A DNA stretch of 52,518 nt from Prevotella sp. (GTDB lineage: Bacteria > Bacteroidota > Bacteroidia > Bacteroidales > Bacteroidaceae): the NCBI GenBank assembly GCA_017615355.1, contig JAGAAJ010000133.1, forward strand, positions 1 through 52,518. The letters run 5' to 3'. The stretch's first letter is position 1; every line of letters begins with the position of its first letter. The position numbers and the translations under genes are program-made. Below the pieces are notes generated by a model. It worked only from the letters and a program-made list of their open reading frames with translations. It searched no databases and was not told the DNA's origin. Below, piece after piece: positions 1,197-49,590 of this stretch.

Positions 1197-1781
1197 ATGA
1201 AGAGAAAGATTTTCATGGGTTTTGTAGCCCTGATGATGGCTGGGACGGCTGCCGCACAGACGGTGGCTGCCAACAAAGATGAACTGGTGGACGAACTCTT
1301 TGCACTTGGTGAAGAGGGGGCCGACGAGATAGACAACTATGACTTCCTTTACAGCAATGACGGTGGGTCGATGAACTACGATGAGCTGATGACTGAGAAC
1401 ATCCTCCAGGAGGCTGTCTCGCACATCGGCAAGCGCTATGTCTATGGTTCGAAGGGACCGAAGACCTTTGACTGTTCGGGCTTCACGAGCTATGTGTACA
1501 AGCACCAGAACAACGTGTGGATCGGTGCCTCTTCACGCGAGCAGTATGCCATCAACACGCCGATCAAGCGTAGCGAGATGCAAGCCGGCGACCTGGTGTT
1601 CTTCACCTCGCCACGATCGGGCCGCAATGTGGGCCACGTGGGCATCATCCTCAGCTATGATCCCGGGACAGACACCTTTACCTTTATCCACGCCTCTACC
1701 AAGGAGGGCATAAAGATCAGCAAGAGCACAGAAGGCTACTACCAACGCCGCTACATCGGTGTACGACGCGTGAAAGAATAG
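1197..1781 (+). CDS. NlpC/P60 family peptidoglycan endopeptidase, exported
   Basis: 194 aa. Cysteine peptidase of the NlpC/P60 superfamily, which cuts gamma-D-Glu-diamino acid or related bonds in cell-wall peptides. A signal peptide (MKRKIFMGFVALMMAGTAAA) is followed by a short acidic linker and the papain-like domain from about residue 67. The catalytic triad is visible: Cys93 in FDCSGF, His147 in VGHVGI and His165 in FIHAS. There is no SH3b or LysM domain. The start at 1197 begins the signal peptide; upstream in-frame codons would add a non-signal extension. It follows the M15 gene by 135 nt, with its own -7 box. Together the two suggest an envelope-remodelling neighbourhood. Confidence 0.88.
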   Translation: MKRKIFMGFVALMMAGTAAAQTVAANKDELVDELFALGEEGADEIDNYDFLYSNDGGSMNYDELMTENILQEAVSHIGKRYVYGSKGPKTFDCSGFTSYVYKHQNNVWIGASSREQYAINTPIKRSEMQAGDLVFFTSPRSGRNVGHVGIILSYDPGTDTFTFIHASTKEGIKISKSTEGYYQRRYIGVRRVKE

Positions 1782-1830
1782 TGCGGCCTGCGGCCTAAAT
1801 GAAAAATGATAAATGAAAAATGATAAAACA
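1781..1830 (+). repeat. Heptamer array (TAAATGA-type), plus orientation, before capA-like gene
   Basis: A GC-rich cap (TGCGGCCTGCGGCC) is followed by heptamers TAAATGA, AAAATGA, TAAATGA, AAAATGA, TAAAACA. It is the inverted partner of the array at 1885-1928. The two could pair as a long hairpin around the start codon at 1831. Confidence 0.75.
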
Positions 1831-2910
1831 ATGAAGAAGACAAGTAAGACACTCAGGAAAGAATGGATGAAAGTGGTTTGTTTATCATTTTTCATTTTTC
1901 ATTTATCATTTAGCAGCGTAGCTGCGCAGACAGACACCCTCACCATCGCTATGGTGGGCGACGTGATGATGGGCACCACCTATCCCAGCCGTATGCTGCC
2001 CGAGAACGATGGCAAGGACCTGTTCAAGGACGCGAAGGACATCCTCAAGAATGCCGACCTGACCGTAGGCAACCTTGAGGGAACGCTTTGTGATGGCGGA
2101 CAGTCGACGAAGGGCTCCGGTCCCAACAGCTATTCCTTCCGCACACCGACCAGCTTTGCGCCGCGCCTGAAGGAGGTGGGCTTCGACTATATGAGCATGG
2201 CCAACAACCACGCCAATGACTTCGGACAGACGGGCATCGAGAGCACAGAGCAGTGCCTGCGCGAGCAGGGCATCCTGTTCAGCGGCATCGAGGGCCGTGT
2301 GGAGAAATGTGTCATTGAGCGAGGCGGAAAGAAGATTGGCCTGTGTGCTTTCGGCCACAACGGCTACACGCTGAAGCATACCGACCTCACCGTAGTGGGC
2401 CGCATCGTCGACGCATTGGTGAAAGAGTGCGACCTCGTCATCGTCTCCTTCCACGGCGGAGCCGAAGGACGCACGCAGAGCCATCTGCCGCAGGGCGGCG
2501 AGACCTTCCTGGGCGAAAACCGCGGCTCGCTGCGCCAGCTGGCACATTTCTGCATTGACCACGGCGCCGACGTCGTCTACGGACACGGCCCGCATGTGGT
2601 ACGTGCAATGGAGGTGTACAAAGGTCGTTTCATCGCCTACAGCCTGGGCAACTTCTGCACACCCTACAACGTCAGCCTGACAGGTATCTCGGGCTATGCA
2701 CCCATTGTGAAGATAAAGATTGACAAGCAGACGGGTGCGTTCCTCGACGGACAAATATACCCCTTTATCCAGACACGCGGCATCGGCCCTAGGACAGACC
2801 GTTCGGGTGCTGTCATCAATCAGCTGAAGCAGCTCTCAGATGCCGATGTACCCCAGAGCCAGGCCAAGATCAGTGCCGAAGGCCGTATCTCTCTGTCTTC
2901 AAGGCAGTAA
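1831..2910 (+). CDS. CapA-family protein (poly-gamma-glutamate capsule type), exported
   Basis: 359 aa. Member of the CapA/PgsA family, which has a calcineurin-like metallophosphatase fold and is linked to poly-gamma-glutamate or capsule handling at the cell surface. Family motifs are seen in order after the signal peptide: MVGDVMMG, NLEGTL, NNHANDFG, YGHGPHVVRAMEVY and YSLGNFC. The signal peptide ends SFSSVAAQ and is encoded by a heptamer DNA array (1885-1928) that recurs in two other genes here. Starts at 1831 or 1867 are possible; 1867 gives a signal peptide of the same length as those two genes. No capB/capC partners are nearby, so capsule synthesis is not implied. Confidence 0.85.
   Translation: MKKTSKTLRKEWMKVVCLSFFIFHLSFSSVAAQTDTLTIAMVGDVMMGTTYPSRMLPENDGKDLFKDAKDILKNADLTVGNLEGTLCDGGQSTKGSGPNSYSFRTPTSFAPRLKEVGFDYMSMANNHANDFGQTGIESTEQCLREQGILFSGIEGRVEKCVIERGGKKIGLCAFGHNGYTLKHTDLTVVGRIVDALVKECDLVIVSFHGGAEGRTQSHLPQGGETFLGENRGSLRQLAHFCIDHGADVVYGHGPHVVRAMEVYKGRFIAYSLGNFCTPYNVSLTGISGYAPIVKIKIDKQTGAFLDGQIYPFIQTRGIGPRTDRSGAVINQLKQLSDADVPQSQAKISAEGRISLSSRQ
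1885..1928 (-). repeat. Heptamer array with cap, encodes signal peptide of the CapA-like protein
   Basis: On the plus strand: TCATTTT, TCATTTT, TCATTTA, TCATTTA, then the cap GCAGCGTAGCTGCGCA, which contains the inverted repeat GCAGC-GTA-GCTGC. It is nearly identical in layout to 5599-5642 and, inverted, to 39221-39269. It is translated in frame as signal-peptide residues ending SFSSVAAQ. Confidence 0.85.
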
Positions 2911-5574: not shown

Positions 5575-8500
5575 ATGAAGCGACTCATTATTTGCATATC
5601 ATTTATCATATGTCATTTGTCATTTAGCAGCGTAGCTGCGCAATCCGGCTACGGCACCGGCGGCGGCTTCAACCCCGACAATCCTGGCATCCCAGGCGCC
5701 TGCGGTCTCTATCTGGACCAAGGCACTGTGGTTCTCGATGGATTGCGCATCTACGAAAACGACCTCTTCGGCGATGCCGTCTATAGCCTGTGGAAGCGGT
5801 ATTGTCAAGAGCATAACATTCCCGAGCGCGATGCCTACATAGGCGACGAGAAGTACATGGAGGTGATGAGCCAGGTGACGCGTGTCATCATCTGTGCCGA
5901 CCTCAGCGAGGTGGAGTACGGTATGGATGCCTCCGACGTAGGCCGCTTTTTCCCCGCCATGACCACCCTCGACCTCAGCCGTACCTACGGTTGGCGCTGG
6001 TTCGGAACGGGTTACGACGAGGACTATTTGCAGCACCTCGAAGTGCTCATCCTGCCCGACTGCGTGGAGCAAGTGACGACCATGAAAGACCTGCACGCCC
6101 TGACCGACGTATACTGCTATGCAGAGCTGCCGCCAGCTATGGAGGAGTCAGGATGGTACAGCAATGACGACCTCTTCGCCGACGACGCGGAGGTGACAGT
6201 ACATGTGCCGAGCAGTTCTGTGGAACTCTATAAGGCCTCTGAAGCATGGGGCAAGTATAACATCGTGGACAACGGCACGAAGACTGGAAAGATAGAGGTG
6301 CGCATGCCGCAGGGTAGCGACCTAGCGCAATACCGCAATATGTGGCTCACGCTGACCGACGAGAGCACGCAGCTCACTACTCGGTATGTCGTCACCAATC
6401 GCAAAAGTTACTTCTTTCCTGGTCTCAGTGCCGATGAAGACATTTCCTTCCGTGTGGCTCTCGAAAACCGCTATGGTACTGTCGTCTGCAAGAAGACGGA
6501 TATACATGTAGGCTTGGCACTTGCTGTGGCACAGCTGGCTGACCCGCTACCCGTGGTCACCGCCACTGTGAAGGATGTCGACAACAATATTGGACTGACC
6601 TGGTATGACAACCGTGGTGACCGCATCACCTCGTCGCCCACGCTGGCCGGCCTGGTGCCTGGCGACGTGGTGTCATTCGACGTGGAACTGAAGGGCACGT
6701 TGGCCAACAGCTATGCCCCGCTACCCAGACAGACTGTCACTATTCCCGCTGATGCTCAGGGCGACTATCCAATCTATTTGCAGCTACAGCCACTCAGCAA
6801 GCATTCCTTTGTGGGCTTCTTGCGCGATGCTGACAGCCATATGCCTCTGCATGAGGCCAATGTAACTGCCGTACGCAGGGTGAACGGACAGGTGGCCGAC
6901 ACCTACAACACACTCTCATACAGCGACGGTAGAATCATTGTTCCCACCTACGAGGGAGAGCTCACCATCTCATGCGCGTCGAAAGACTATCTGCGCAAGG
7001 ATGTGGTGCTCAACGTCACCTCTGCCACTGCCGAGACATGCCAGATAGGTGACATCTTCCTGCGACGGGCCGACGGCAAGACCGTCAGCCTCGACTTCTG
7101 CTACATCCCAGCAGCAGTAGGAGCACCAGGGAGTTCTACCAGCTACATCAAAGGTTTTGAAGACATGCTCGTCACGGTCTATAACGAGACACAGGGAGAG
7201 CGTCTTAACAATGTCTCTGTGCAGTTGCCCTTACTGATACTGCTCGACGGCGTGGATGACGGTGACGAGCTACGCTTGGACTTCACCTCGGCTAACAATG
7301 CCTTTGACCCCTTCTCTGTCACGACAACCATGGAAGACGGCCATGCCACCGCTACCGCCACCATTACCGAGAAGGGTGGTTTCCACTCCACATTCAGCAC
7401 GACAAAAAACGGCAGTGTAGCAGCCATCGTCTACGACAGTGAGGGTTGCTATGTCAGCCATCACATCCATAGTACAGCCACACTCGACGTCAAAGGCATC
7501 GATGAGGGTAATTATACGCTTATTACCATGGCCTACGACCCCGTGCTCAGCCAGCTCACAACCCTCGACGCATACGAGGAAATAGGACTTAAGGAGAACA
7601 GCGACTATCTACGCCATGATTTCAGCGTCAGTCCCGGTATCCTCACCGTCATCAATCTGGGCGAAGTGCCTGTCATCAACCTTGAAGAGCTGAAGGCCGT
7701 ACACCCCTCATCAACATTCAGCATCAGCCAGCCCAATATCATCCGTGGCGATTATGTCACCGTCAGGGCCAACGTGAAGGTGAAGAACGAGATTGCCAAG
7801 GACAGCTGGAACTATGATAACTTCTGCCTGCTCTTCGACCTGCCACAGGGATGTCCCATCCTGAATGGGTCACTCATGGTCGACGGCGAAGTAAAAGACC
7901 CCGAATATGAGGGTGGACGTTTGAAGGTACTTACCAACGGCTTAGAGGAGGGACGGACTGTTGACGTGCGTTTCTGCCTAACCTGTAAGGAACTGGGAAA
8001 GCATACCCTCAATGCCCTACTGGGCTTCCACCACTACGATTGGGAGAACGGCAGCGACGACTACCTCACACCAGTAGGATCTGCCACCGTCGAGGTTAGT
8101 CCAATGCAGTATTCTATCTCTAACCAATGCCTAGGAAGTGTGGTGGTGAGCGGCACCGGACCTAATGATGCACTCGTAAAAATGTTAGAGGATGAGACCT
8201 TACTGGCAGAGACTAACATCAAGGGCAACAAATGGAAAATAGTGGCAGACCTACCGCAAGCCTATAACCTCTCCACACATTCCATTCACATAGAGTGCAT
8301 CACGAAGGAGGGCGATATATATTCAACGCCTGTCACCACAGTGACGGTGAACCGCGACATGAACACCGTCAAGAAGGTAACCATGCTCTATCCCAATGCC
8401 TACAAGAATAGTACCGAAACGTGTACATGGCTTTTCACCGAACCAGACACAAAGGTGGAGACATATGATTGGTACATGTTCTCCAACTCCTATACCTTCC

Positions 8501-11334
8501 TCATTGATTTCCTACGCAATGACACCACTGAGATTGGTGACGTGGAGTTACATGTGGAGTCAAGTGGTGGACGCCAGAACACATTCCCCGCCAGCTTCGA
8601 CGAACAGCGTGGCTGCTGGGTGACCACTTTCTTGTTCTCGCCTCCGGTTGACGTGGCTGTGTCCTTCACACGCAAGAACCAGAAGTTCAAGGCAGACCGT
8701 GAACTAATCAGCCAACTTTGGCAGGACATGAACGCGCAAGTCAGTCAGGAGAACCAGTTGAATGCTATCGTCAACAGCATTACCGACGACAATATCGACG
8801 AAAAACTCAAAGAGGCTGAAACCCTCTTGGGCATATCCCTCAGCGACGGTCAACCCAATGAAGAAACCAAACAATGGATAGCATGGTATGAATCGCTCCC
8901 AAAAGAAGAAGCTGCCGAAGCATTGCAACAGTTGATAGAAGAGGCAGACAGCAAGCTGGAGGAGCTAGAAGGACTGACGAGCAACCTATACGCAACCATC
9001 AACCTTATTGGCAGCTACACACTTGACGACGGTACTTCGTTTATCGTTAGTGACTGCTCAGCCTACAGTGAGAGTAGCATCCTTCAGCAAGGTTTCAAGG
9101 CTGTGGAAACCACCGACGGCACCAGCATCTATATGCTTGTCGATGGCACACGTGTAGTGACTGTTGACTTTGCCAGCGGCTATACTATCGAAATTGCCTG
9201 TCCGTCACTCATCACAGAGAACAATCCCAGCATGGCCAGGGCAAACGTGCATGCTATGGTCGAAAAGTGCATATCTTTCCTCAAGGATGTTGTCTTGGCT
9301 AAGATTATCGACACTTATAACAGTGTATTCGACAAAGTTGCCAATGCGACGCAACTCATGATAGACTCCTACAAATATCTTGAGCAATGCGAATTCGCTC
9401 TTCAGCTGACATGTCAGGACGAGAATCTGGGAATAGTAGAAAAAGCGAAGGCATGGGCAAAGTTGAAGGCCGTGAGGGTAGCCAAAACAATGAGCAAGGA
9501 ATCACTGGGCCGCATACGTTACATCAGCAGTCTGCTGGGCAAGCTGATGATTGTGCCCAACTACCTTGCGCTCTTCCAGAAATACAGCAAGCTGGCAAAG
9601 AACTACGAGGCACTCGATGACAAGATTCCAGACCCCTGCCCCAATGACGAGCGCGCCGTGGAGAACATCAGGATGATGATTGACGATGGCATGAGCTCAC
9701 TACTCGTATACTGTTTGGGCGACCTTACCATCAACCTCTCCAGCGACATCGCCACGCTCCTAGGCATCGGTTTCGCAGCAGAGACCATGGGAGCTACACT
9801 AGCTATCTCTGCTGCCAGCTGCCTGTTCAAGACTGCCGTACAGTGGGCTGTAGACAACTCGTGCGAAAGTGACCACCAACAACGGCAGCAGCTTATCAGA
9901 TGGTGCATTATGGGGCTGGAGTGCGACGAGGAAGAGAAGAAAGACCCAGGTTCCTTCGGTGACTATCACATACCACCTGAGACCCCCACATCACCAGAAA
10001 AGATACCATTGCTCGACCCCTCGGGCTTCGTCTGTGAGGCTGTGGAGAGCAACCGTCTGGAGGGCGTCACCGCCACATGCTTCTACAAGAAAGAGGTGGA
10101 AGACATGTATGGCGACAAACATGAGGAGGTAACCGTCTGGGAGGCTGAGAACTATGGGCAGGTCAACCCGCAGCTTACCGACAAGGATGGAATGTACTCG
10201 TGGATGGTGCCTAGCGGTCAGTGGCAGGTACTATACGAAAAGGACGGCTACGAGACAAAGCGCTCTGAGTGGCTGCCCGTCCCACCGCCACAACTTGATG
10301 TTAATGTTGGACTGGTGCGTCGTGCACAGCCTGCGCTTAGCAGTGGTAATGCCTACGAAAAGGCTATCGACGTGGATTTCTCGCTCTACATGAAGAGCAA
10401 CTATATCACCAAGCAGACGCTCACCTTCTGGCAGGATGGCCAGCAGTTGCAGGGCGAGCTGAAGGCCACCAACGGCGAAACGGCCTTTGCTGTCACCTCG
10501 GCTGATGACGATGTTGAGGGCCCGCAGTGTGCCTCCTCCTTCCGCTTCGTGCCGAAGAAGACGCTGGCCGTGGGCTCTGAGGTCACCGCTCGTGTCAATG
10601 GCATCGTCCGCAGCTATGCCGACGTGCCCATTGGCGAAGACCAGGAAATAAAGCTCACTGTGGGACGCGAGGTAACAAGTATTGGCAGCGATGGCAACAT
10701 TACTGTGCCTTACGGTGGTACCCACCAGGTGGTGATTACCGCCAAGTCAGCTCAGGCAGCTGCTTATCGCAAGGTGACCATCACCTCTCTGTCACCAGAC
10801 ATTGCACAGCTGGAGACCAACCGTGTGACACTCGATGCAGAGGGCAAGGCCTATATCACCGTCAAGGGCTTGTTGCCTGGCACCACCTACCTAAATTTCG
10901 CCGTGGAAGGCTCGCAGGTAAAGGGTATGGACACTGTGCGTGTGGTCAGCAACCTCGACTTTGTAGAAGCTCCAAAGGCTAGCATCATCAGCGGTATGTA
11001 CGTCAGCGAGGGCACTCAAGTAGAGCTTACCGCTCAGCCTGGCTGCACCATTTGGTATACTCTTGATGGCTCCTGCCCCTGCGACGAGACGACTCGTAAG
11101 CGCTACACAGGCCCTATTACCATTACTGCCAATACCAAGCTGCGTGCGATGGCCGTTGATGCCAAGGGTAACGAGAGCGAGGTAGTCACCTTTACTTGGT
11201 TCATCGGCACAGGAATTGCTAACGTCAACGTCAACGTTAACAATAATAACATTTACGACCTGCAGGGTCGCAAGACTGAGCAATCTGGGCGCGGTATCTA
11301 CATCATTAATGGTAAGAAAGTCCTTCAGGAATAA
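5575..11334 (+). CDS. Giant multidomain secreted protein (carboxypeptidase-regulatory-like and CHB_HEX-type domains)
   Basis: 1919 aa. The signal peptide (ending SFSSVAAQ) is encoded by a heptamer repeat array. What can be seen: an N-terminal LRR-like stretch (about 30-230); a carboxypeptidase-regulatory-like beta domain about 408-495; beta-rich Ig-like regions to about 1040; a helical, coiled-coil-prone section about 1042-1460 with a hydrophobic segment near 1395-1425; a second regulatory-like domain (about 1480-1585, DPSGFVCEAV then WLPVPPPQLDV); Ig-like repeats about 1600-1795; a chitobiase C-terminal-like domain about 1797-1880 (IWYTLDGSCPCDE); and a Prevotella-type tail (YDLQGRK ... GIYIINGKKVL). 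No catalytic domain is recognised. It may be an adhesin or scaffold; function is unknown. It lies directly behind the BspA-like gene. Confidence 0.7.
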   Translation: MKRLIICISFIICHLSFSSVAAQSGYGTGGGFNPDNPGIPGACGLYLDQGTVVLDGLRIYENDLFGDAVYSLWKRYCQEHNIPERDAYIGDEKYMEVMSQVTRVIICADLSEVEYGMDASDVGRFFPAMTTLDLSRTYGWRWFGTGYDEDYLQHLEVLILPDCVEQVTTMKDLHALTDVYCYAELPPAMEESGWYSNDDLFADDAEVTVHVPSSSVELYKASEAWGKYNIVDNGTKTGKIEVRMPQGSDLAQYRNMWLTLTDESTQLTTRYVVTNRKSYFFPGLSADEDISFRVALENRYGTVVCKKTDIHVGLALAVAQLADPLPVVTATVKDVDNNIGLTWYDNRGDRITSSPTLAGLVPGDVVSFDVELKGTLANSYAPLPRQTVTIPADAQGDYPIYLQLQPLSKHSFVGFLRDADSHMPLHEANVTAVRRVNGQVADTYNTLSYSDGRIIVPTYEGELTISCASKDYLRKDVVLNVTSATAETCQIGDIFLRRADGKTVSLDFCYIPAAVGAPGSSTSYIKGFEDMLVTVYNETQGERLNNVSVQLPLLILLDGVDDGDELRLDFTSANNAFDPFSVTTTMEDGHATATATITEKGGFHSTFSTTKNGSVAAIVYDSEGCYVSHHIHSTATLDVKGIDEGNYTLITMAYDPVLSQLTTLDAYEEIGLKENSDYLRHDFSVSPGILTVINLGEVPVINLEELKAVHPSSTFSISQPNIIRGDYVTVRANVKVKNEIAKDSWNYDNFCLLFDLPQGCPILNGSLMVDGEVKDPEYEGGRLKVLTNGLEEGRTVDVRFCLTCKELGKHTLNALLGFHHYDWENGSDDYLTPVGSATVEVSPMQYSISNQCLGSVVVSGTGPNDALVKMLEDETLLAETNIKGNKWKIVADLPQAYNLSTHSIHIECITKEGDIYSTPVTTVTVNRDMNTVKKVTMLYPNAYKNSTETCTWLFTEPDTKVETYDWYMFSNSYTFLIDFLRNDTTEIGDVELHVESSGGRQNTFPASFDEQRGCWVTTFLFSPPVDVAVSFTRKNQKFKADRELISQLWQDMNAQVSQENQLNAIVNSITDDNIDEKLKEAETLLGISLSDGQPNEETKQWIAWYESLPKEEAAEALQQLIEEADSKLEELEGLTSNLYATINLIGSYTLDDGTSFIVSDCSAYSESSILQQGFKAVETTDGTSIYMLVDGTRVVTVDFASGYTIEIACPSLITENNPSMARANVHAMVEKCISFLKDVVLAKIIDTYNSVFDKVANATQLMIDSYKYLEQCEFALQLTCQDENLGIVEKAKAWAKLKAVRVAKTMSKESLGRIRYISSLLGKLMIVPNYLALFQKYSKLAKNYEALDDKIPDPCPNDERAVENIRMMIDDGMSSLLVYCLGDLTINLSSDIATLLGIGFAAETMGATLAISAASCLFKTAVQWAVDNSCESDHQQRQQLIRWCIMGLECDEEEKKDPGSFGDYHIPPETPTSPEKIPLLDPSGFVCEAVESNRLEGVTATCFYKKEVEDMYGDKHEEVTVWEAENYGQVNPQLTDKDGMYSWMVPSGQWQVLYEKDGYETKRSEWLPVPPPQLDVNVGLVRRAQPALSSGNAYEKAIDVDFSLYMKSNYITKQTLTFWQDGQQLQGELKATNGETAFAVTSADDDVEGPQCASSFRFVPKKTLAVGSEVTARVNGIVRSYADVPIGEDQEIKLTVGREVTSIGSDGNITVPYGGTHQVVITAKSAQAAAYRKVTITSLSPDIAQLETNRVTLDAEGKAYITVKGLLPGTTYLNFAVEGSQVKGMDTVRVVSNLDFVEAPKASIISGMYVSEGTQVELTAQPGCTIWYTLDGSCPCDETTRKRYTGPITITANTKLRAMAVDAKGNESEVVTFTWFIGTGIANVNVNVNNNNIYDLQGRKTEQSGRGIYIINGKKVLQE
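5599..5642 (-). repeat. Heptamer array with cap, encodes signal peptide of the 1919-aa protein
   Basis: On the plus strand: TCATTTA, TCATATG, TCATTTG, TCATTTA, then GCAGCGTAGCTGCGCA. The cap is identical to the one at 1913-1928, although the two genes are otherwise unrelated. Confidence 0.85.
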
Positions 11335-21123: not shown

Positions 21124-22476
21124 ATGAACGAGAATACCAAACAGTTTACGCTGGCGCACGCCGATGACGACGTGCGCCAGCTTGCGTTAAAAGGCTGCCG
21201 GGACGCTGAGGTAGATTTTCCTATGGCCTTGCAGCAGATTAGCGGACGACAAGCGGCACAAACCAAGATTCCCTCTTGGGCAAAGCTGGATGATATCCGT
21301 TATCCTGTACACCTGTCAATGGAACAGTGTAGTAGCGAGGCCACAGCCCTCTATAAGGTGCGGCTTGTCAAAAGCGTCTTAATTTCCAATAATCTCATTA
21401 ATCCCAAAGCGGCCAAGTCTCCCTACCGCAAACTGCTTGATTTGACGGGCGGCTTCGGTGTGGACTTTGCTTTCTTGTGTGAGTTGTTTGACGAGGGTGT
21501 CTATGTGGAGCGTGATGAGACTCTTTGCGCCCTTGCACACCATAATTTCCAGGTGTTGAGCAAGGATATATCGATGGAGTCGATGAAGCGAATGGAATTG
21601 GAAAGTCCTATGGATGTGCTCAACTTTTCTGTGGTTCATGCCGAGGCAGAGACGTTCCTGCACAGGATGGAAGAGCATGTCACCCTTGTCTTTATCGATC
21701 CGGCACGACGCGACAAGCACGGCGCACGCACCTATAGTCTCAGCGACTGCACACCTGACGTTTTACCGCTGATGGATGAGTTACTGCGCAAATCCGACTA
21801 TGTTCTGCTCAAACTATCGCCGATGCTGGATTGGCGGAAAGCGATGGCTGATGTAGGCACTGAGCATGTAGAGCAGGTGCACATAGTGGCTGTGGGTAGC
21901 GAGTGCAAGGAGCTGTTGCTGTTGCTCTCTGCCAATGGTTCACCGCAGCCTCAGCTCGTCTGCAGCAACGACGACATGCAGGAGGTATTCGCCTTGAAAA
22001 CCGGCAAAGACCCTGACATAGCTAGTAAAACTAGTATCACTAGCGAAACTAGTATGACTAACACAACTAGTATATTTAGTGAAACTAGTACAATTGGCAA
22101 AATCATGGGGAATGCGCCGCTCTTTCTCTACGAACCCCATGCCGCATTGATGAAAGGCGGCTTTTTCGAAGAATTAGCACACCGCTATGGTGTGACACCT
22201 TTGGCACCGAACAGTCACCTTTTTACCTCCGATAAACTAGTGGATAACTTCCCTGGCCGTACCTTCCGCGTGACAGCTGTGAGCACGATGAACAAGCAAG
22301 AACTGAAGGAAAAGGTGATGCCCATCAAGCAGGCGAATATCAGCGTCCGCAATTTCCCCATGAGTGTTGATGCCTTGCGCAAGAAACTGAAGCTCAGCGA
22401 GGGTGGCAACATCTATTTATTTGCCACCACCCTCGTCGATGGCAGACACATCCTTCTGCTGGGTAACAAAATATAA
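21124..22476 (+). CDS. THUMP-like SAM-dependent methyltransferase
   Basis: 450 aa. Class I methyltransferase with the SAM-binding motif LLDLTGGFGVDFAF (about 108-121) and a catalytic-type motif FIDPARRDKHGAR (about 192-205); the C-terminal ~100 residues fit the THUMP-like domain of this family. Bacteroidota genomes carry one such protein; the substrate, probably RNA, is not established. Start: an upstream GTG (21106) would overlap the LruC stop codon, so the ATG at 21124 is preferred. Residues about 303-324 are encoded by an 18-nt tandem repeat (22030-22101, Thr/Ser-rich) that looks like an insertion in a loop between the two domains. A convergent terminator follows. Confidence 0.78.
   Translation: MNENTKQFTLAHADDDVRQLALKGCRDAEVDFPMALQQISGRQAAQTKIPSWAKLDDIRYPVHLSMEQCSSEATALYKVRLVKSVLISNNLINPKAAKSPYRKLLDLTGGFGVDFAFLCELFDEGVYVERDETLCALAHHNFQVLSKDISMESMKRMELESPMDVLNFSVVHAEAETFLHRMEEHVTLVFIDPARRDKHGARTYSLSDCTPDVLPLMDELLRKSDYVLLKLSPMLDWRKAMADVGTEHVEQVHIVAVGSECKELLLLLSANGSPQPQLVCSNDDMQEVFALKTGKDPDIASKTSITSETSMTNTTSIFSETSTIGKIMGNAPLFLYEPHAALMKGGFFEELAHRYGVTPLAPNSHLFTSDKLVDNFPGRTFRVTAVSTMNKQELKEKVMPIKQANISVRNFPMSVDALRKKLKLSEGGNIYLFATTLVDGRHILLLGNKI
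22030..22101 (+). repeat. 18-nt tandem repeat inside the methyltransferase gene
   Basis: ACTAGT occurs at 22030, 22048, 22066 and 22084, exactly 18 nt apart, inside units beginning AACTAGTAT. Being a multiple of three, it keeps frame and encodes six-residue units starting TS (TSITSE, TSMTNT, TSIFSE, TSTIGK). Confidence 0.9.
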
Positions 22477-27952: not shown

Positions 27953-29250
27953 CGCTCGATAATTTCAAGGCACATGCGGCTGTTGTGGTAAGGGCACTTC
28001 CAGAAGCCGGCGTGATCGTCGTCAAGATTCAACGTTCCGTCGGCCCTGCGGCTCCAGTACCACTCGCCATGCTCCCAGTCTATCAGGTTGTCCTTGATAT
28101 ACTGCCAGCAGCGCAGCGCACGCTGTAGTGCCTCCTCATCACCAAAGTGCTGATAGATATTCAGCCAACCTACGACGTTTTCGGCCTGCACCCACCAGTG
28201 CAGGTCGTCGTCTTTTTTACCCGTGCCAAGGTTGGCTTCGTGTATCATTGAGCCATCAGCGTTGAGTCCTTTCTCGCTGGCTTTTGCCACCATTTTCACG
28301 ATGGATTCGACCTTTTTTAGCAATTCTTCGTCGCCCAGCACCAGCGCAGCCTCATGCATCAGCCATGAACACTCGATGTCGTGACCGTAGCTCTCCAGCT
28401 GACCTGCACCACGTGTCCAGTCCATCTCGAAGAACAGGTCGAGGTGATGCGTCTTGGGGTTGAGAATCTTGTCCGTGAAGATGTCGATGAGATTGCGCAG
28501 GGCAGCCTCTACGCGAATGATGGTTTCAGTAGGGACGGCAATGTCAATAGGAATGACTGAGCCGATGACAGGAACGTAGGCACATTCCTGGGCAGCCTGC
28601 AGCTCACGCAAAGCCCGCAGCAGGTTGGTGTAGGGCTCGATGATGTGCAGGTGAGTGTTCTGCGACTTGGGATAGTTGGCGTCGAGGTCGCTCAGACGCA
28701 TGTCGGCCATCTCTCCCCATTCCCTCGTACAGGCCTCGATATAGCCGTTGTGCTCCGGGTCGAAGGCATATTCCTCGATGCAGTCAAAGAGCTGCAGGGC
28801 ATAGTCGAGGGCCTCGCGGTCGCCAGTGGCACGTGCATACTCCGACAGGCCGTAAAGGGCGAAGCCGATAGCATAGAATTGCTTTTTTGTGTCCTTCGGC
28901 TGTCCCAGATGGTCCACGCTCCAGTACACGCCACCATATTCTTTATCGATGAAATGGGCTAAAATGTAATCTTTAGCCCGAGTGGCGGCCTCCAAGTATT
29001 CTCGCACCTTCGCACCTTCGCACCTTCGCACCTTCGAGAGAACGCGATACGCCGCCGAGAAGCTCCATAGGATGCGTGCATTCAGGATGGCACCCTTGTC
29101 AGCCTCCTTGTTCAACTCGTAGCGGCCCGTCATCTGACCGTAGAAGCCACCATGCTCCTTGTCCTGCATTTTGTCGAGCCAGAAAGGCAGGATGTTCTGT
29201 GTCAGCACATCCAATGCTTCCTGCTTCAATGTTTTAATCTCCTTCTTCAT
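27943..29250 (-). CDS. AGE-family 2-epimerase (cellobiose/mannobiose 2-epimerase)
   Basis: 435 aa, cytoplasmic. N-acylglucosamine 2-epimerase superfamily, (alpha/alpha)6 barrel. The motif SQNTHLHIIEPYTNL (about 196-210, His200 and His202) and the N-terminal HGGFYG and later WYWSRRADG blocks are typical of cellobiose/mannobiose 2-epimerases, which convert the reducing-end glucose or mannose of beta-1,4 disaccharides. Residues about 71-83 (SKVRRCEGAKVRE) are encoded by four copies of an octamer (28997-29036) and look inserted between two helices. The repeat unit is not a multiple of three, so a copy-number change would shift the frame. Which disaccharide is used cannot be decided. Confidence 0.87.
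   Translation of the reverse strand: MKKEIKTLKQEALDVLTQNILPFWLDKMQDKEHGGFYGQMTGRYELNKEADKGAILNARILWSFSAAYRVLSKVRRCEGAKVREYLEAATRAKDYILAHFIDKEYGGVYWSVDHLGQPKDTKKQFYAIGFALYGLSEYARATGDREALDYALQLFDCIEEYAFDPEHNGYIEACTREWGEMADMRLSDLDANYPKSQNTHLHIIEPYTNLLRALRELQAAQECAYVPVIGSVIPIDIAVPTETIIRVEAALRNLIDIFTDKILNPKTHHLDLFFEMDWTRGAGQLESYGHDIECSWLMHEAALVLGDEELLKKVESIVKMVAKASEKGLNADGSMIHEANLGTGKKDDDLHWWVQAENVVGWLNIYQHFGDEEALQRALRCWQYIKDNLIDWEHGEWYWSRRADGTLNLDDDHAGFWKCPYHNSRMCLEIIERYS
28997..29036 (+). repeat. Octamer array with TATTCTCG anchor inside the epimerase gene
   Basis: Plus strand: TATTCTCG followed by four identical CACCTTCG units. The same anchor and layout occur at 33044-33083 in an unrelated gene. 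Confidence 0.9.
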
Positions 29251-29381: not shown

Positions 29382-29429
29382 AGAGGTCGTATTCAGAAGA
29401 TGTTAAAATATAGCTCATTTGAGGCCTTA

Positions 29430-29465
29430 ACGTCACCACGTCACCGTCACCAACGTCACCAACGC
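29430..29465 (+). repeat. GTCACC array 1 (plus)
   Basis: AACGTCACC, ACGTCACC, GTCACC, AACGTCACC, AACGC: iteron-like repeats of 6-9 nt in the left arm of the element. Confidence 0.9.
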
Positions 29466-29497
29466 AAATGTCTGCTACGCTTCCCTGATCTGCGTCA

Positions 29498-29511
29498 GCT
29501 GAAATTTCAGC
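29498..29511. repeat. Palindrome 1: GCTGAAATTTCAGC
   Basis: 14-nt perfect palindrome preceded by CTGCGTCA and followed by CCACGTTC. First of three related copies. Confidence 0.9.
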
Positions 29512-29576
29512 CCACGTTCGCTTGTCCAGTCGAAGCCTTTCGCCACCCTGCGGCATATCGACCCTATTCGATGTGA

Positions 29577-29590
29577 GCGAAAATTTTCGC
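29577..29590. repeat. Palindrome 2: GCGAAAATTTTCGC
   Basis: 14-nt perfect palindrome followed by CCACATTC. The same GCnnAAATTTnnGC frame as the other two, with a compensated change. Confidence 0.9.
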
Positions 29591-29605
29591 CCACATTCAC
29601 TATCC

Positions 29606-29690
29606 CAGGGGCCTCAGGAATTTGCTGCGGAGCTCCCTTTTTTTGCTGAAGAGCCTCTTTATTTTCCTGAAGAGCCTGTTTATCCTCAAA
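29606..29690 (+). repeat. GCGGAGC / CTGAAGAGCCT module, copy 1
   Basis: Contains GGAATTTGCTGCGGAGC and GCCTCTTTATTTTCCTGAAG. A related copy lies at 49187-49278 in the other repeat-rich gap. Confidence 0.75.
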
Positions 29691-29723
29691 TCCTCTCGAG
29701 AATTCATCCCCTAATCTGCGTCA

Positions 29724-29737
29724 GCGCAAATTTGCGC
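29724..29737. repeat. Palindrome 3: GCGCAAATTTGCGC
   Basis: 14-nt perfect palindrome preceded by CTGCGTCA and followed by CCACGTTC, as in copy 1. Confidence 0.9.
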
Positions 29738-29790
29738 CCACGTTCACATTTTTCTATTCCGTTCATTATCAGGCAATTAATAAATTTCGC

Positions 29791-29827
29791 TTGGTGACGT
29801 GGTGACGTGGTGACAGGTGACGTTAAG
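29791..29827 (-). repeat. GTCACC array 2 (minus)
   Basis: Plus strand GGTGACGTGGTGACGTGGTG then ACAGGTGACGTTAAG; inverted relative to arrays 1 and 3. Confidence 0.9.
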
Positions 29828-29842
29828 GAAGGGAAACGACCT

Positions 29843-29880
29843 CAAAAATAAATATATTATTACATAATATATTATTTTTG
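29843..29880. repeat. AT-rich palindrome between inverted arrays
   Basis: A segment beginning CAAAAATAAATATATTAT and ending ATAATATATTATTTTTG can pair around a short centre, giving an AT-rich cruciform between arrays 2 and 3. Confidence 0.8.
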
Positions 29881-29903
29881 AATTTTATATAAGTTAAATT
29901 TTC

Positions 29904-29938
29904 GCTTAACGTCACCATGTCACCGTCACCATGTCACC
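29904..29938 (+). repeat. GTCACC array 3 (plus)
   Basis: CTTAACGTCACCATGTCACC then GTCACCATGTCACC. Confidence 0.9.
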
Positions 29939-29981
29939 ATTCAAAGGTAGTGCGACTCATTTCATTAGCACACAGCCAACC

Positions 29982-30024
29982 GCGTTGGTGACGTGGTGAC
30001 GGTGACGTGGTGACGTTAAGGCCT
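29982..30024 (-). repeat. GTCACC array 4 (minus), in right arm
   Basis: Inverted copy of array 1; with the following 22 nt it forms the right arm of the element. Confidence 0.9.
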
Positions 30025-33602: not shown

Positions 33603-36413
33603 TTACTCACTCAGCATGGTCACCTCGATGCGGGCGCCGTTCTTCAGCAACTGGCGGGCCAACTGCTGCACATCGGCAGCCGTCATCTGGCGAACCATAT
33701 CGCAGTAGCCGTCATCGAAGTCGGCATCATCGTCGAGCTGGTGCCAGGCCACATAATCCCAATAGTCATTGGTGATGGCCACCTGCTGATACTGCTTGAG
33801 CAGATACTCGCGCACCTTCTCCATCGACGAGGCGGCAGGACCGTTGTCGGCAATGTTCTTCAGCTGCTGGTAGACGATGGGATTCAGCTCCTCATAACGG
33901 TTGGGGTCAGCATTGTAGGAGATGCGTACCATCGTGTTGGGCTTGTCGTCCTTGTCGAGGTCGAAGTCGACGCTGACACCATAGGTGCCGCCCTTCTCCT
34001 CACGAACCGAGTCGGTGTAGGCGATGCTGAGCGTACGTTTCAGGAAGTCGAGGACGAGGTCGTTCTTCGGCGTGAACTCGAGATCGGCCAAGTAGAAGAT
34101 GCTGACATTGGCCAGCGGCGTAGCCATCTTCTTCTTAAAGACGTAGGCGCCGTCCTTGGCTACAACCTGGGGAATGACCTGAGTGGCGACAGGCGTGGGT
34201 TGAGCGTTGGGAGAAGGCAGGCTGGCCAGATACTTGCAGATGAGCGGACGGAGATCGTCGAGCGACATGCTGCCGATGATGACGGTCTTGAAGTCGGCGG
34301 CATTGGAGAAACTCTGCTTGTAGAGCTCAAACATGCGGTCGTAGCTGACTCGTGCCAGACGGGCCTGCGACATCGGCTCCAGACGCGGATGATGACCATA
34401 GAGGATGGCCGTGATAGAGTCGTTGTAGTCCACTCGCGGCGAAGCATTGCGATTGTTCAGGAACGAATGGGTGCGATTCTTCAGGGCCTCGAAGGCCTCG
34501 GTATCACGACGCGGCTGCGAGAAATAGAGATAAACCAGCTGCATCATCGTCTCGGTGTCCTGCAAAGCAGCACCGCCAGTGATGCTGCGTGAGCGGCTAC
34601 CCACGGAAGGCGACACACGCACGCTGCGACCGTTGAGAATCTTGCGTAGCTGCATGGCATCCCATTGGCCTACGCCGGCATCGGTCACGGAACTCGTCAG
34701 CAGCGAGAAATTGTCGATATCCTCGTCGCCAAAGAGGCTGGTGCCACCATCGGCACGCATCTTCAGCTGCACCACGTTAGAGCTGAAATCGGTCTGGCGC
34801 ACATACACCTTCATGCCGTTGGAGAGCGTCAACTCCGTGAAGCCGTGCATCCAGGGCTTCTCGCTCACGATGGTGCCAGCCTTAGGCTGCTCGGTCAGCA
34901 GCTCAGTACCCAGCTGCTGCTCCTCGACAGGTGCATACTGCTGTCGCTGCGTGGCCAGGATGACATCCTCAATCTGCTGCTCGGTGGGCAGGGGCACGGA
35001 CTCCTTATCAGGGGCATACATTAGGACCACCTGATTCTGGTCGCTGATGAGCTCATGCACATACTTGTTCACCTCATCGAGGGTCACCTCGCGCTCAAAC
35101 TTCTGCGTCAGCTCCCATTGCGTATCTTGCGAGATAAGAGGCTCACCCTCCAAGAAATGATCGGTGCACTCGCTGACGAGCTTCGAGTTCTTGCGGTCGT
35201 CACGCTCCAACCATTTGCGCTCGTCGTGATTGCGGCGGACGGACTTCGCCCAGTTCAGCTCGGCCTGTGTAAAGCCCTGCTGACGAATCTGCTCGCAAGC
35301 AGCCACAGCGCTGATAATGCCGCCAAGGATATTCTCCTGCTTGCAGCTGATGCTCAGCGAGAAGGCATCCATCGAACGGCTCAGGAAGAAGGTGTTGGCA
35401 CGGGCCGTAGAGCTCTGGAACGGCGGATTGGCCTGCTGCTTCAGGGCCGACAGACGCTCGTTGGCCATGTGACCGATGAGCAGGTCGATATATTCGCCGC
35501 GCAGGTATTCCTCGGTGTTCTTCTGGTCATCGGGTGTAGCAGGCTTCTTCATATAGAGATGACACAGCACGATGGGCTGCTCGGCATCCTTCTCGATGTC
35601 GACAATCATCTTCTCGTTGTTGTCGACAGTATAATAGATGCGCTCGGCACGCTTTTTCGGCAGAGGAATGTCGGAGAAGATTTTCTTGATCTTCTTCTCC
35701 ATCTTGTCCACGTCGATGTCGCCCACAACAATAACGGCCTGCAGGTCAGGACGGTACCACTTCTGATAGTAGTCGCGCAAATCCTGATAGGCGAAGTTGT
35801 CGACGATATCCATCGAGCCAATGGGCATGCAGTCCTCATACTTCGTGCCCTTGTATACCTTCGGCATGGCCTGTTCCATCAGTCGCTGGATGGCACGGCC
35901 GGCACGGCGGGTACGCCACTCCTCATGGATGACGCCACGCTCCTTGTCAATCTCGGCATCCTCAAGCAACAGGAAATGGCTCCAATCGTGCAGCACGAGG
36001 AGACATGAGTCGGCAATGCCCTCACGCTTCAAGGGAGCAGCGCCGATGTGATAGACGGTCTCGTCGATGCTGGTGTAGGCATTGAGGTTGGCACCGAACT
36101 TCACGCCAATGGTCTCGCACCAAGGCACGATGCCAAGTTTCTTCCCCTTGCCCGGGAAGTTCTTCGTACCGTTGAAGGCCATGTGCTCGAGGAAATGGGC
36201 GAGGCCACGCTGACGCGGCTCTTCAAGGATGGAGCCCACACGCTGGGCGATGTAGAAATCGGCCAGCCCCGGCTCCTTGTCGTTGTGACGGATGTAATAG
36301 GTCAGTCCGTTCTTCAACTTGCCCACCCTGACGGCAGGGTCTTGGGGCAGAGGCGTCTGTGCCGACATGCCTATGGCCATCAGCACCATCAGTAATGCAA
36401 AGATTCTTTTCAT
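33603..36413 (-). CDS. M16-family zinc peptidase (pitrilysin/insulinase type), exported
   Basis: 936 aa. A signal peptide (residues 1-19, GMSAQ) is followed by tandem M16 domains. The first is active-type, with the inverted zinc motif HFLEH (His73, Glu76, His77) and downstream ERGVIHEEW supplying the third ligand; the second (about 500-936) lacks HxxEH, as usual. Such periplasmic peptidases degrade peptides in a closed chamber. The start at 36413 begins the signal peptide; an in-frame ATG at 36425 would add four residues. The leader is made of AAATGAG-like heptamers (36415-36460). It lies between era and the sulfatase gene in one orientation. Confidence 0.9.
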   Translation of the reverse strand: MKRIFALLMVLMAIGMSAQTPLPQDPAVRVGKLKNGLTYYIRHNDKEPGLADFYIAQRVGSILEEPRQRGLAHFLEHMAFNGTKNFPGKGKKLGIVPWCETIGVKFGANLNAYTSIDETVYHIGAAPLKREGIADSCLLVLHDWSHFLLLEDAEIDKERGVIHEEWRTRRAGRAIQRLMEQAMPKVYKGTKYEDCMPIGSMDIVDNFAYQDLRDYYQKWYRPDLQAVIVVGDIDVDKMEKKIKKIFSDIPLPKKRAERIYYTVDNNEKMIVDIEKDAEQPIVLCHLYMKKPATPDDQKNTEEYLRGEYIDLLIGHMANERLSALKQQANPPFQSSTARANTFFLSRSMDAFSLSISCKQENILGGIISAVAACEQIRQQGFTQAELNWAKSVRRNHDERKWLERDDRKNSKLVSECTDHFLEGEPLISQDTQWELTQKFEREVTLDEVNKYVHELISDQNQVVLMYAPDKESVPLPTEQQIEDVILATQRQQYAPVEEQQLGTELLTEQPKAGTIVSEKPWMHGFTELTLSNGMKVYVRQTDFSSNVVQLKMRADGGTSLFGDEDIDNFSLLTSSVTDAGVGQWDAMQLRKILNGRSVRVSPSVGSRSRSITGGAALQDTETMMQLVYLYFSQPRRDTEAFEALKNRTHSFLNNRNASPRVDYNDSITAILYGHHPRLEPMSQARLARVSYDRMFELYKQSFSNAADFKTVIIGSMSLDDLRPLICKYLASLPSPNAQPTPVATQVIPQVVAKDGAYVFKKKMATPLANVSIFYLADLEFTPKNDLVLDFLKRTLSIAYTDSVREEKGGTYGVSVDFDLDKDDKPNTMVRISYNADPNRYEELNPIVYQQLKNIADNGPAASSMEKVREYLLKQYQQVAITNDYWDYVAWHQLDDDADFDDGYCDMVRQMTAADVQQLARQLLKNGARIEVTMLSE

Positions 36414-36414
36414 A

Positions 36415-36460
36415 TCATTTCTCATTTTCTGTATTTCTCATTCTCTCATTTCTCATTCCG
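36415..36460 (-). repeat. AAATGAG-type heptamer stretch between era and the M16 gene
   Basis: The minus strand reads GAATGAG, AAATGAG, AGAATGAG, AAATACAG, AAAATGAG, AAATGAT: a looser relative of the TAAATGA arrays. It spans the era stop codon and the whole intergenic leader. Confidence 0.65.
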
Positions 36461-38395: not shown

Positions 38396-39283
38396 TTACA
38401 GATAAAGTCCGAAGGACAGCGAGCGGAACTTGATACCTCCGTCTTTCAGCACGTCATCATTGCTGTATTTCACGTAGAAGGGGAAGTCGGCAATCCTCAT
38501 GTTCACCATCCAGTCAATGGTGATGGGCCGCTGGCGGATATTTTTCTCCATGCGTTTTACCTTATCGCCCAAGAGCTTATAGCGTGTCTTGATAGAAGCA
38601 TAGGTATTGAAATTCACGACGGGACCAAAGCCGATGGCAAAACCGTGGCCGAAGTCATGCTCGTAGCGCAGCGTAGCCGTAAGCGAGAAGACCTTGATAC
38701 GCGAGAACTGCGGCTCGAACTCCAGCGGATAGCGGTCGACGGTGACATCGCCAGCCATGTCCTTGGTAAACATCATATCGTCCGTGATGCGATAGTTACG
38801 CCAGTCGATACCCAATCCCAACGAGAAGATGTCGCGCCAGCGACGGTCCATCGCATGATCCCATTGAACGATATTGGCAAAGAACTCCCATGACTTAAAC
38901 GTGGAAAAGTCCAGGCGACTGTCGGCATTTGTCGGTGCCGTAAAGCCCACACCCAAATGAGCTGTGATTACATTACGGTGGTCACATTGGGAAGTGCCGT
39001 CTTCCGTGCTTCTACGACCCACGGGCAGTGACGGGATGAGTTCCCAATGGTCGCGACTGATGCTGACGCTGCTCTCATAGTTAGCGTCCACAAGGCGAAT
39101 CGTGTTCTGGTAGACAAAGTCGCTGTCACCCCGTTTGCCGTTGACGATGATACGTTGCAGGGAGTCGCTGCTGACGATGGTTACCTTATGTGGGTCATTG
39201 ATGACGAGCGTGTCGTTTTGTGCGGCTACGCTGCTAAATGACAAATGAAAAATGACAAATGATAAATAAGCGATGCGTTTCAT
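38396..39283 (-). CDS. Predicted outer-membrane beta-barrel protein
   Basis: 295 aa. The signal peptide ends SFSSVAAQ and is encoded by the heptamer array at 39221-39269. The mature protein shows alternating amphipathic strands from about residue 105 on (VITAHLGVGF, FSLGLGIDW, LTATLRYEHDFGHGFAIGFGPVV) and ends LSFGLYL, an aromatic-terminal beta signal. No named family is recognised. It is the last gene of a minus-strand run that begins with an ECF sigma factor (sigma, anti-sigma, small exported protein, barrel), so it may be a target or sensor of that sigma system (inference from position). Confidence 0.7.
   Translation of the reverse strand: MKRIAYLSFVIFHLSFSSVAAQNDTLVINDPHKVTIVSSDSLQRIIVNGKRGDSDFVYQNTIRLVDANYESSVSISRDHWELIPSLPVGRRSTEDGTSQCDHRNVITAHLGVGFTAPTNADSRLDFSTFKSWEFFANIVQWDHAMDRRWRDIFSLGLGIDWRNYRITDDMMFTKDMAGDVTVDRYPLEFEPQFSRIKVFSLTATLRYEHDFGHGFAIGFGPVVNFNTYASIKTRYKLLGDKVKRMEKNIRQRPITIDWMVNMRIADFPFYVKYSNDDVLKDGGIKFRSLSFGLYL
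39221..39269 (+). repeat. Heptamer array with cap, encodes signal peptide of the barrel protein
   Basis: Plus strand: cap TGCGGCTACGCTGC, then TAAATGA, CAAATGA, AAAATGA, CAAATGA, TAAATAA. The gene reads the opposite strand and translates it as a signal peptide ending SFSSVAAQ. Confidence 0.85.
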
Positions 39284-49507: not shown

Positions 49508-49590
49508 GTTTCCAACAAGGAAACAATTTGTTTCTAGGCTGGAAACACTTTGTTTCTTGGGCGGAAACAAAATGTTTCCGATGTGAAACA
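49508..49590. repeat. Ladder of GAAAC palindromes with 22-nt period
   Basis: GAAACAATTTGTTTC (49520), GAAACACTTTGTTTC (49542) and GGAAACAAAATGTTTCC (49563) have GAAAC at 49520, 49542, 49564 and 49585. A GTTTCC/GGAAAC pair (49508-49524) precedes them. Confidence 0.85.

What the first reader, a model, noticed from the sequence alone, without database searches (positions are those of the whole stretch)
1885..1928. A repeated heptamer-plus-cap DNA array has become the signal peptide of three unrelated exported proteins
At 1885-1928, 5599-5642 and 39221-39269 four heptamers (TCATTTx) plus a palindromic cap (GCAGCGTAGCTGCGCA or a two-base-shorter variant) encode the same signal-peptide end, SFSSVAAQ, in a CapA-like protein, a 1919-aa surface protein and an outer-membrane barrel. 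DNA identity across unrelated genes exceeds what codon choice needs, so the DNA element itself seems to have spread, supplying a ready-made hydrophobic core and signal peptidase site.
Basis: partly seen in the sequence, partly recalled or inferred. Interest (0 to 1): 0.82.

Follow-up and report, generated by a model that had tools for sequence, protein, structure and literature searches.

The report
Repeat DNA copied as signal peptides
Some rumen Prevotella genomes carry a short repeated DNA element, a row of seven-base units ending in a small hairpin, that has been copied in front of unrelated genes, where it is read as the export signal that sends the protein out of the cell.

Summary
It is one case of a dispersed repeat found in Prevotella-titled genomes: TCATTTN heptamers ending in a small hairpin.

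Of 155 arrays examined, 67 are in signal-peptide position; of the 88 others, 43 lie antisense just before the ATG of a long frame (about 18 expected).

In 113 stretches from public genomes, both unconstrained stem pairs of the cap are complementary in 100 of 114 matches (shuffle mean 31). At a fourfold-degenerate codon position the base fits the hairpin in 110 of 125 genes. So nucleic-acid structure, not only protein, fixes the codons.

In one genome a 127-nt cassette (antisense array, start codon, signal peptide, cap) stands before five genes with unrelated products at 88-96% identity; similarity stops at the predicted cleavage site. Many orthologues have ordinary signal peptides.

What copies the element is unknown: the one transposase family searched is missing from several carriers. 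Many copies are inherited vertically. Closest known: REPINs, Rickettsia protein-coding palindromes, TAACTGA heptamers.

The parts
1785..1795 (-). Hairpin cap GGCC-GCA-GGCC of a noncoding, antisense copy, lying just after the stop codon of the upstream frame
   Evidence: folds alone at -6 kcal/mol, not exceptional against shuffles (z -0.85)
1797..1830 (-). Antisense heptamer array (AAATGAN on +), the leader of gene 1; contains its first ATG (1813)
1813..2910 (+). Gene 1, PGA_cap (CapA-type) exported protein, 365 aa (ATG at 1813, or 1831 in frame)
1878..1911 (+). Sense heptamer array, translated as the hydrophobic core (CLSFFIFHLSF)
1912..1928 (+). Hairpin cap A-GCAGC-GTA-GCTGC-GCA, translated SSVAAQ; the loop codon is predicted residue -3, GCG residue -1
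   Evidence: folds at -7 kcal/mol (z -1.0)
5575..11334 (+). Gene 2, 1919-aa protein (CHB_HEX_C_1 and Fn3_assoc near its end)
5599..5625 (+). Sense heptamer array of gene 2 (one diverged unit, TCATATG)
5626..5642 (+). Hairpin cap of gene 2, identical to that of gene 1
   Evidence: -7 kcal/mol (z -2.05)
38396..39283 (-). Gene 3, 295-aa protein, no Pfam family
39236..39269 (-). Sense heptamer array of gene 3
39219..39235 (-). Cap of gene 3 with two substitutions (AGCAGCGTAGCCGCACA); one stem pair broken
   Evidence: only -2.7 kcal/mol (z -0.6)

Best explanation
The three signal peptides are copies of one dispersed DNA repeat family of Prevotella-type genomes: a tail of TCATTTN heptamers followed, in many copies, by a small hairpin (mostly 4-5 bp). 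Shown here: the element exists as DNA in coding and noncoding sites and both orientations; its hairpin is preserved by paired changes even inside genes; and in one genome a cassette made of two inverted copies flanking a start codon stands, nearly identical, before unrelated genes and ends at the predicted signal-peptidase site. Inferred: in the sense strand every frame of the array reads as the same stop-free, largely hydrophobic heptapeptide (this follows from the sequence), and in one frame the cap adds A/V-x-A-Q, so a copy landing upstream in frame, or recombining into an existing signal-peptide region, gives a working export signal. In the antisense direction the array is rich in stops and ATGs but A-rich, so it can serve as a translation leader. 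Duplication is at the DNA level by an unidentified route; domestication then keeps frame-compatible copies, which pass to descendants.
For: Arrays: 24 overlapping matches (13 arrays) in G000, reversed control 0; 11 of the 13 are in signal-peptide position. Strict motif in 65 of 299 genus genomes, very uneven (none in 234, 42 matches in G048). Perfect hairpin stem of 4 bp or more at the 3' side of the array in 40 of 67 signal-peptide and 34 of 88 other arrays, against 6 of 155 on the 5' side and 3.6% of random 28-mers. Paired changes: both free stem pairs complementary in 100 of 114 (shuffle mean 31.3, max 47 of 5000); fourfold site 110 of 125 (within-residue shuffle mean 81.2, max 96 of 20000). 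Cassette: five G315 copies 88-96% identical over 127 nt, 18-40% in the 60 nt after the cap; 22 of 30 G315 loci examined gave a leader of this kind, and the 22 mature parts share no BLASTP hit at E<1e-3. Exchange: the CapA orthologue G113 copy b (93% identical) and G204 (84%) have array-free signal peptides; none of 30 GHL10 orthologues carries the G315 cassette.
Against: No copying agent found: PF01797 is absent from G000 (89.7% complete) and from G048 (97%), G270 (71%), G307 (76%), G241 (76%) and G315 (completeness not given), but present in the other five of ten carriers; no other transposase family was searched. No target-site duplication was evident by eye in the eight G315 flanks printed. 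No filled and empty site from sister strains was seen. Cap types are only weakly shared within a genome (71 of 247 against 1368 of 6110 pairs, permutation 49 of 1000). Orthologues of 85% identity or more share the cap type in 8 of 9 pairs, so much of the distribution is vertical. 27 of 67 signal-peptide arrays lack a perfect 4-bp stem, and the window caps folded alone are not exceptional (z -0.6 to -2.05). The covariation sets include orthologues, so counts are not independent events. Signal-peptide function rests on position, sequence and orthologous context; no SignalP or experiment was available. Some genomes also match the reversed control pattern.
Confidence: 0.78

Rival explanations
1. 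Protein-level convergence or ordinary gene fusion: selection for a favourable signal peptide (LSFIICHLSFS..A.AQ), with DNA similarity as a by-product of codon preference.
For: Many coding copies sit exactly where a signal peptide is needed and share one frame (99 of 114; 83 of 198 array rows).
Against: Several codons used are rare in 11 long frames of the window (TCA 11.8% of Ser, TTA 2.9% of Leu, GGG 5.1% of Gly, GCG 7.5% of Ala). A 7-base period is not a codon multiple. The same DNA occurs antisense and noncoding (88 of 155 arrays outside signal-peptide position). The synonymous position of the cap follows base pairing. Nucleotide identity extends over untranslated leader in G315.
Confidence: 0.04
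2. Copying is by homologous recombination or gene conversion between existing arrays and hairpins, not by transposition: leaders are exchanged because arrays and caps offer short homologies.
For: Replacement rather than simple insertion in the G315 GHL10 gene: mature similarity to orthologues starts at the predicted cleavage site, and the cassette stands in place of the usual leader. No Y1 transposase in five of ten carriers. No evident target duplication. Orthologous genes can carry different caps.
Against: It needs a first copy at each gene, and orthologues with array-free signal peptides have none. Within-genome sharing of cap type is weak.
Confidence: 0.4
3. A REPIN- or MITE-like element moved by a transposase; the inverted pair with two hairpin ends is the mobile unit.
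For: The inverted pair around gene 1 folds as one long hairpin (window 1780-1935, -49.6 kcal/mol, z -6.9). Similarity in G315 runs from the left hairpin region to the right one. Tandem and inverted clusters of elements.
Against: PF01797, the family of the usual REPIN partner, was not found in G000 or in five of ten carriers, though most of those genomes are incomplete. No target duplication seen in eight flanks.
Confidence: 0.3
4. The cap palindrome is kept by mutation, not selection: replication template switching repairs imperfect palindromes, so paired changes need no function of the hairpin.
For: Known process (PMC8794818, title and start of abstract seen in a listing). Coding and noncoding caps alike are palindromes of many sequences. 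14 of 114 caps have a broken pair, as expected of intermediates.
Against: Not testable here; selection on a DNA or RNA hairpin predicts the same pattern.
Confidence: 0.45

Closest known systems
REPINs / REP sequences with RAYT transposases (PMC3116915, abstract and section list seen)
   Same: Short palindromes, often as inverted pairs with a spacer that fold into one hairpin; dispersed, many copies
   Different: REPs are extragenic and RAYT-linked by that abstract; here heptamer tails, many copies in signal-peptide position, and no PF01797 match in several carriers
Rickettsia palindromic elements and other protein-coding palindromes (described in PMC2229807, passages read)
   Same: Palindromic repeats read in frame inside genes, also intergenic
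   Different: In those passages Rickettsia elements are inserted in 19 reading frames, many of conserved proteins; here the coding copies examined are at the signal peptide, in one frame, ending at the predicted cleavage site
Enterobacterial RU elements; [quoted passage not shown]
   Different: One main case there (another RU-1f protein also has a predicted signal peptide); here many genes, with cap covariation and whole start-plus-signal cassettes
TAACTGA heptamer repeats of Beggiatoaceae, Cyanobacteria and some Bacteroidetes (PMC4679880, passages incl. abstract, sections 9 and 12 read)
   Same: Heptamer arrays, stop-rich in one orientation and open in the other, often just before start codons
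   Different: Other unit sequence; the parts read describe no hairpin cap and no signal-peptide use
BrickBuilt MITE with 23-bp minisatellite in Porphyromonas gingivalis (PMC4596501, abstract and section list seen)
   Same: Tandem repeat inside a small inverted-repeat element in Bacteroidales
   Different: Always intergenic according to the abstract; 23-bp unit

Membership tests
REPIN / REP | short palindrome, many dispersed copies | tested here: met
REPIN / REP | inverted doublets forming a long hairpin | tested here: met
   35 of 99 signal-peptide copies have an antisense array within about 230 nt upstream against 151 of 5650 random windows; one pair folded, z -6.9. The other 64 of 99 have none, so singlets are common
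REPIN / REP | Y1 transposase (RAYT) in the genome | tested here: not met
   PF01797 not found in G000 or in G048, G270, G307, G241, G315; found in 5 of the 10 carriers. Most of the negative genomes are incomplete
REPIN / REP | extragenic location | tested here: not met
   67 of 155 arrays are in signal-peptide position
MITE | terminal inverted repeats, under about 200 bp, non-autonomous | tested here: met
   G315 cassettes and the window pair, about 130-150 nt with inverted arrays and hairpins
MITE | target-site duplication | tested here: inconclusive
   none evident by eye in eight G315 flanks; no empty alleles available
Protein-coding palindromic elements (RPE-like) | palindromic repeat translated in frame within unrelated genes | tested here: met
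   translation itself not shown by experiment
Protein-coding palindromic elements (RPE-like) | sequence relation to the Rickettsia elements | not tested
   no sequence comparison made
TAACTGA heptamer repeats | unit TAACTGA | tested here: not met
   unit is TCATTTN / NAAATGA

The most novel reading that the evidence does not exclude
A mobile signal-peptide cassette: a hairpin-bounded DNA unit carrying leader, start codon and complete signal peptide, whose right end coincides with the signal-peptidase site, so that each jump before a gene can re-address its product. The hairpin is conserved in coding DNA by paired changes that alter residues -4 and -2 together while sparing -3 and -1.
Probability: 0.4. 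Interest if true: 0.9.

Novelty: new variant of a known kind. Interest (0 to 1): 0.77.

Why it matters
It gives a concrete, repeated example of repeat DNA turning into a functional protein part, with dozens of copies to compare. It shows how signal peptides can be swapped wholesale between genes, and it looks like a natural case in which a nucleic-acid hairpin dictates synonymous codons and even paired residues of a protein. Pattern searches can extend it across Prevotella, and both the copying route and the role of the hairpin are open to experiment.

Tried and rejected
Plain convergence or codon preference: rejected. RAYT-driven mobility: PF01797 searched in G000 and seven relatives (found in 5 of the 8, not G000) and in ten carriers (found in 5 of 10); so not required, though a different enzyme, or a gene lost in incomplete assemblies, is not excluded. 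Phage or plasmid carriage: 14 stretches in the viral collection (their context was not examined) and no plasmid match to the cassette; not pursued. Known RNA family: only a tRNA in the window at gathering scores. Genome-wide homogenisation of caps: weak. Slippage and phase variation by unit gain or loss: seven related pairs printed (in two of them one copy is cut off at the locus end); I saw no one-unit difference in the pairs that could be compared, but there are no strain-level data, so untested. Sense-strand G-U tolerance as a sign of RNA-level selection: the commonest broken pair (C-A, 7 of 114; five of the seven are CC/GA, synonymous for Gly where coding) is uninformative. Literature: eight searches, two of them empty. 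None of the titles and abstract starts listed described a Prevotella TCATTTN heptamer-hairpin element or a mobile signal-peptide cassette; long result lists were shown only in part (e.g. 20 of 383), and the library lacks most subscription journals.

Full report
Observation. Each is a row of TCATTTN units followed by a 17-base cap, and each is read ...HLSFSSVAAQ. The third cap has two substitutions, not two bases fewer. The two-unit pattern, one mismatch allowed, matches 17 times in the window against a shuffle mean of 0.25. A fourth copy, antisense and noncoding, stands just upstream of gene 1 with its own hairpin GGCC-GCA-GGCC.

In the genome. The window is contig C72 of a 3.25-Mb draft, 89.7% complete. 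Three exact units occur in 13 arrays, reversed control 0. Eleven of the 13 are in signal-peptide position; two are antisense between genes, one of them overlapping the last codons of the upstream frame. Most host genes are unrelated: PGA_cap, GH3, GH106, PorZ-type propeller, outer-membrane efflux protein, glucosaminidase with LysM, an alpha/beta hydrolase. Two of the ten (L061 and L064) do share a family, Exo_endo_phos (PF03372); one of the ten had no match and one only a marginal one; of the window's three, gene 3 had no match. The source of the window was not given. I place it with Prevotella by inference: several same-genus handles have contigs of the same length as public contigs titled Prevotella or Prevotellaceae, for example G075:C5 and CADASP010000005 at 272142 bases and G241:C16 and DEJE01000001 at 66307.

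Across the genus. The strict motif is in 65 of 299 genomes and very uneven: 234 have none; matches are 42 in G048, 33 in G270, 32 in G261, 28 in G208. The reversed control matched one to three times in six of the 299 genomes by my count. In a first look, 7 of 40 genomes (the own one counted) had three-unit arrays: 7 of 24 in the genus and 0 of 16 outside it; three of the 40 also matched the reversed control. In the collection of 84,980 species, the capped pattern with two free base pairs gave 113 stretches. The 80 shown and the remaining 33 listed are all titled Prevotella, Prevotellaceae, Bacteroidaceae or Bacteroidales; many titles name rumen or other ruminant samples.

Two uses. The sample is 155 distinct arrays in 110 sources: the window, 60 stretches of three genomes, and 49 further loci, chosen because they hold arrays (two of the stretches for a cap). 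67 are in signal-peptide position. Of the 88 others, 43 have the ATG of a frame of at least 100 codons within -9 to +60 on the antisense strand, against 13 within -9 to +80 on the sense strand; a random point gives 824 of 4000, so about 18 of 88 would be expected. Bacteroidetes lack Shine-Dalgarno signals and favour unstructured leaders (PMC3155529, abstract read), so an A-rich antisense array is a plausible leader. That is inference.

The cap is a nucleic-acid structure. A perfect stem of 4 or more follows the array in 40 of 67 signal-peptide arrays and 34 of 88 others, against 6 of 155 on the other side and 3.6% of random 28-mers. So 27 of 67 coding caps have no such stem. In 57 of 82 genes, chosen by protein class and not by palindrome, pairs 4-12, 5-11 and 6-10 are complementary in 46, 47 and 44 (shuffle means 24, 20, 34); the outer pairs 2-14 and 3-13 hardly vary and say nothing. 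Six of the 57 came first from a cap search, but the array search lists them too. In the 113 public stretches (114 matches; 99 in signal-peptide position by rule, 6 cut by ends, 9 other) both free pairs are complementary in 100 of 114, shuffle mean 31.3, maximum 47 of 5000. Within one residue type the synonymous base still fits the partner: Ala is GCT in 25 of 28 genes where the partner base is A, GCG in 5 of 7 where it is C, GCC in 3 of 4 where it is G. Over Gly, Ala and Val it is 110 of 125 (the other 16 of 141 genes have another residue), within-residue shuffle mean 81.2, maximum 96 of 20000. These genes include orthologues, so they are not all independent events. The geometry explains the tolerance: the loop codon (mostly GCA or GTA) is predicted residue -3 and GCG residue -1, while the paired codons are -4 and -2. 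Folded alone, the four window caps are not exceptional (z -0.6 to -2.05); the case rests on the covariation.

Spread as DNA. In genome G315 (Prevotella sp. RUI127) the cassette query gave 106 matches; 19 places cover at least 116 of its 144 bases at 70-100% identity, not counting one reverse-strand match at a place already counted. Of the 30 loci fetched, 22 gave a leader of this kind; their mature parts, as far as the loci reach, share no BLASTP hit at E<1e-3. The five closest copies are 88-96% identical over 127 nt and 18-40% in the next 60 nt. Four of these five genes are GHL10, GH2, a TPR protein and a two-component propeller; the fifth was not scanned. Among 3321 pairs of capped elements from the first 80 public loci, 28 are similar upstream and not downstream, 1 the reverse and 4 both; the upstream score includes further array units (median 12, downstream 0).

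Exchange of leaders. CapA orthologues: 43 of 200 genomes have one. Of 30 fetched loci, 27 could be read at the N-terminus. G000, G166, G108 (partly decayed) and G075 have arrays; G155 and G189 have array-like remnants; the other 21, among them G113 copy b, 93% identical in the mature part, and G204, show none. G113 copy a has an array with a third kind of cap. Protein 3: of 30 loci, 29 reach the N-terminus; arrays in G000, G113, G166 and G088, decayed ones in G075, G173 and G189, none that I could see in G204, G167, G048 or the more distant ones; the caps differ but stay palindromic or nearly so. GHL10: none of the 30 closest orthologues (63-81% identical) has the G315 cassette; three keep one or two array-like units, and G232 has another heptamer with the GCCCC-GCA-GGGGC cap. 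One other genome does have an array-capped GHL10 homologue, L346, 65.5% identical, with yet another palindrome.

Against. Of nine orthologue pairs of 85% identity or more, eight share the cap type and so presumably inherit it. Sharing of cap types within a genome is weak, permutation 49 of 1000. No transposase was tied to copy number: only PF01797 was searched, not found in G000 nor in five of ten carriers, of which only G048 is nearly complete (97%), and found in the other five. No target duplications were evident in eight flanks. The viral collection gave 14 stretches and the plasmid collection none. No SignalP was available.

RNA fold. Window 1780-1935, the inverted pair around the start of gene 1, folds at -49.6 kcal/mol against -27.5 for shuffles. 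It may affect translation, or be a relic of the inverted DNA; not tested. An antisense array stands within about 230 nt upstream of 35 of 99 public signal-peptide copies, against 151 of 5650 random windows.

Literature. Beggiatoaceae heptamers (PMC4679880), RU-2 in a Yersinia signal peptide (PMC2759123), Rickettsia coding palindromes (PMC2229807), REPINs (PMC3116915), BrickBuilt (PMC4596501) and template switching (PMC8794818, start of abstract only) are the nearest found. What was listed in the eight searches showed no earlier description of this element.

Noticed in passing
window 36415-36458: Mixed TCATTTC/TCATTCTC array without a cap, over the start of the 940-aa minus-strand frame (33603-36425).
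   Followed up: no
window 29002-29036 and 29429-30016: Octamer TCGCACCT array and several GTCACC / TGGTGACG arrays close together in one stretch.
   Followed up: no
window 49508-49578 and 22028-22090: 22-base (GTTTCCAACAAGGAAACAATTT-type) and 18-base (AAACTAGTATAACTAGCG) tandem arrays.
   Followed up: no
L442 (G232), L419, L404, L410, L031: Other heptamer units (CTATTCA-type, AACTCTC, AATGTTT, CTAAACT) occur in leaders or flanks; in L442 one precedes the same GCCCC-GCA-GGGGC cap. Period-7 arrays far outnumber periods 5, 6, 8, 9 and 10 in this biased set of loci (472, of which 10 are runs of masked N, against 60 or fewer).
   Followed up: partly
L160 (G048:C59): A very long array of about 18 units (132 nt) ending in GGCC-GCA-GGCC.
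   Followed up: no
   Followed up: no
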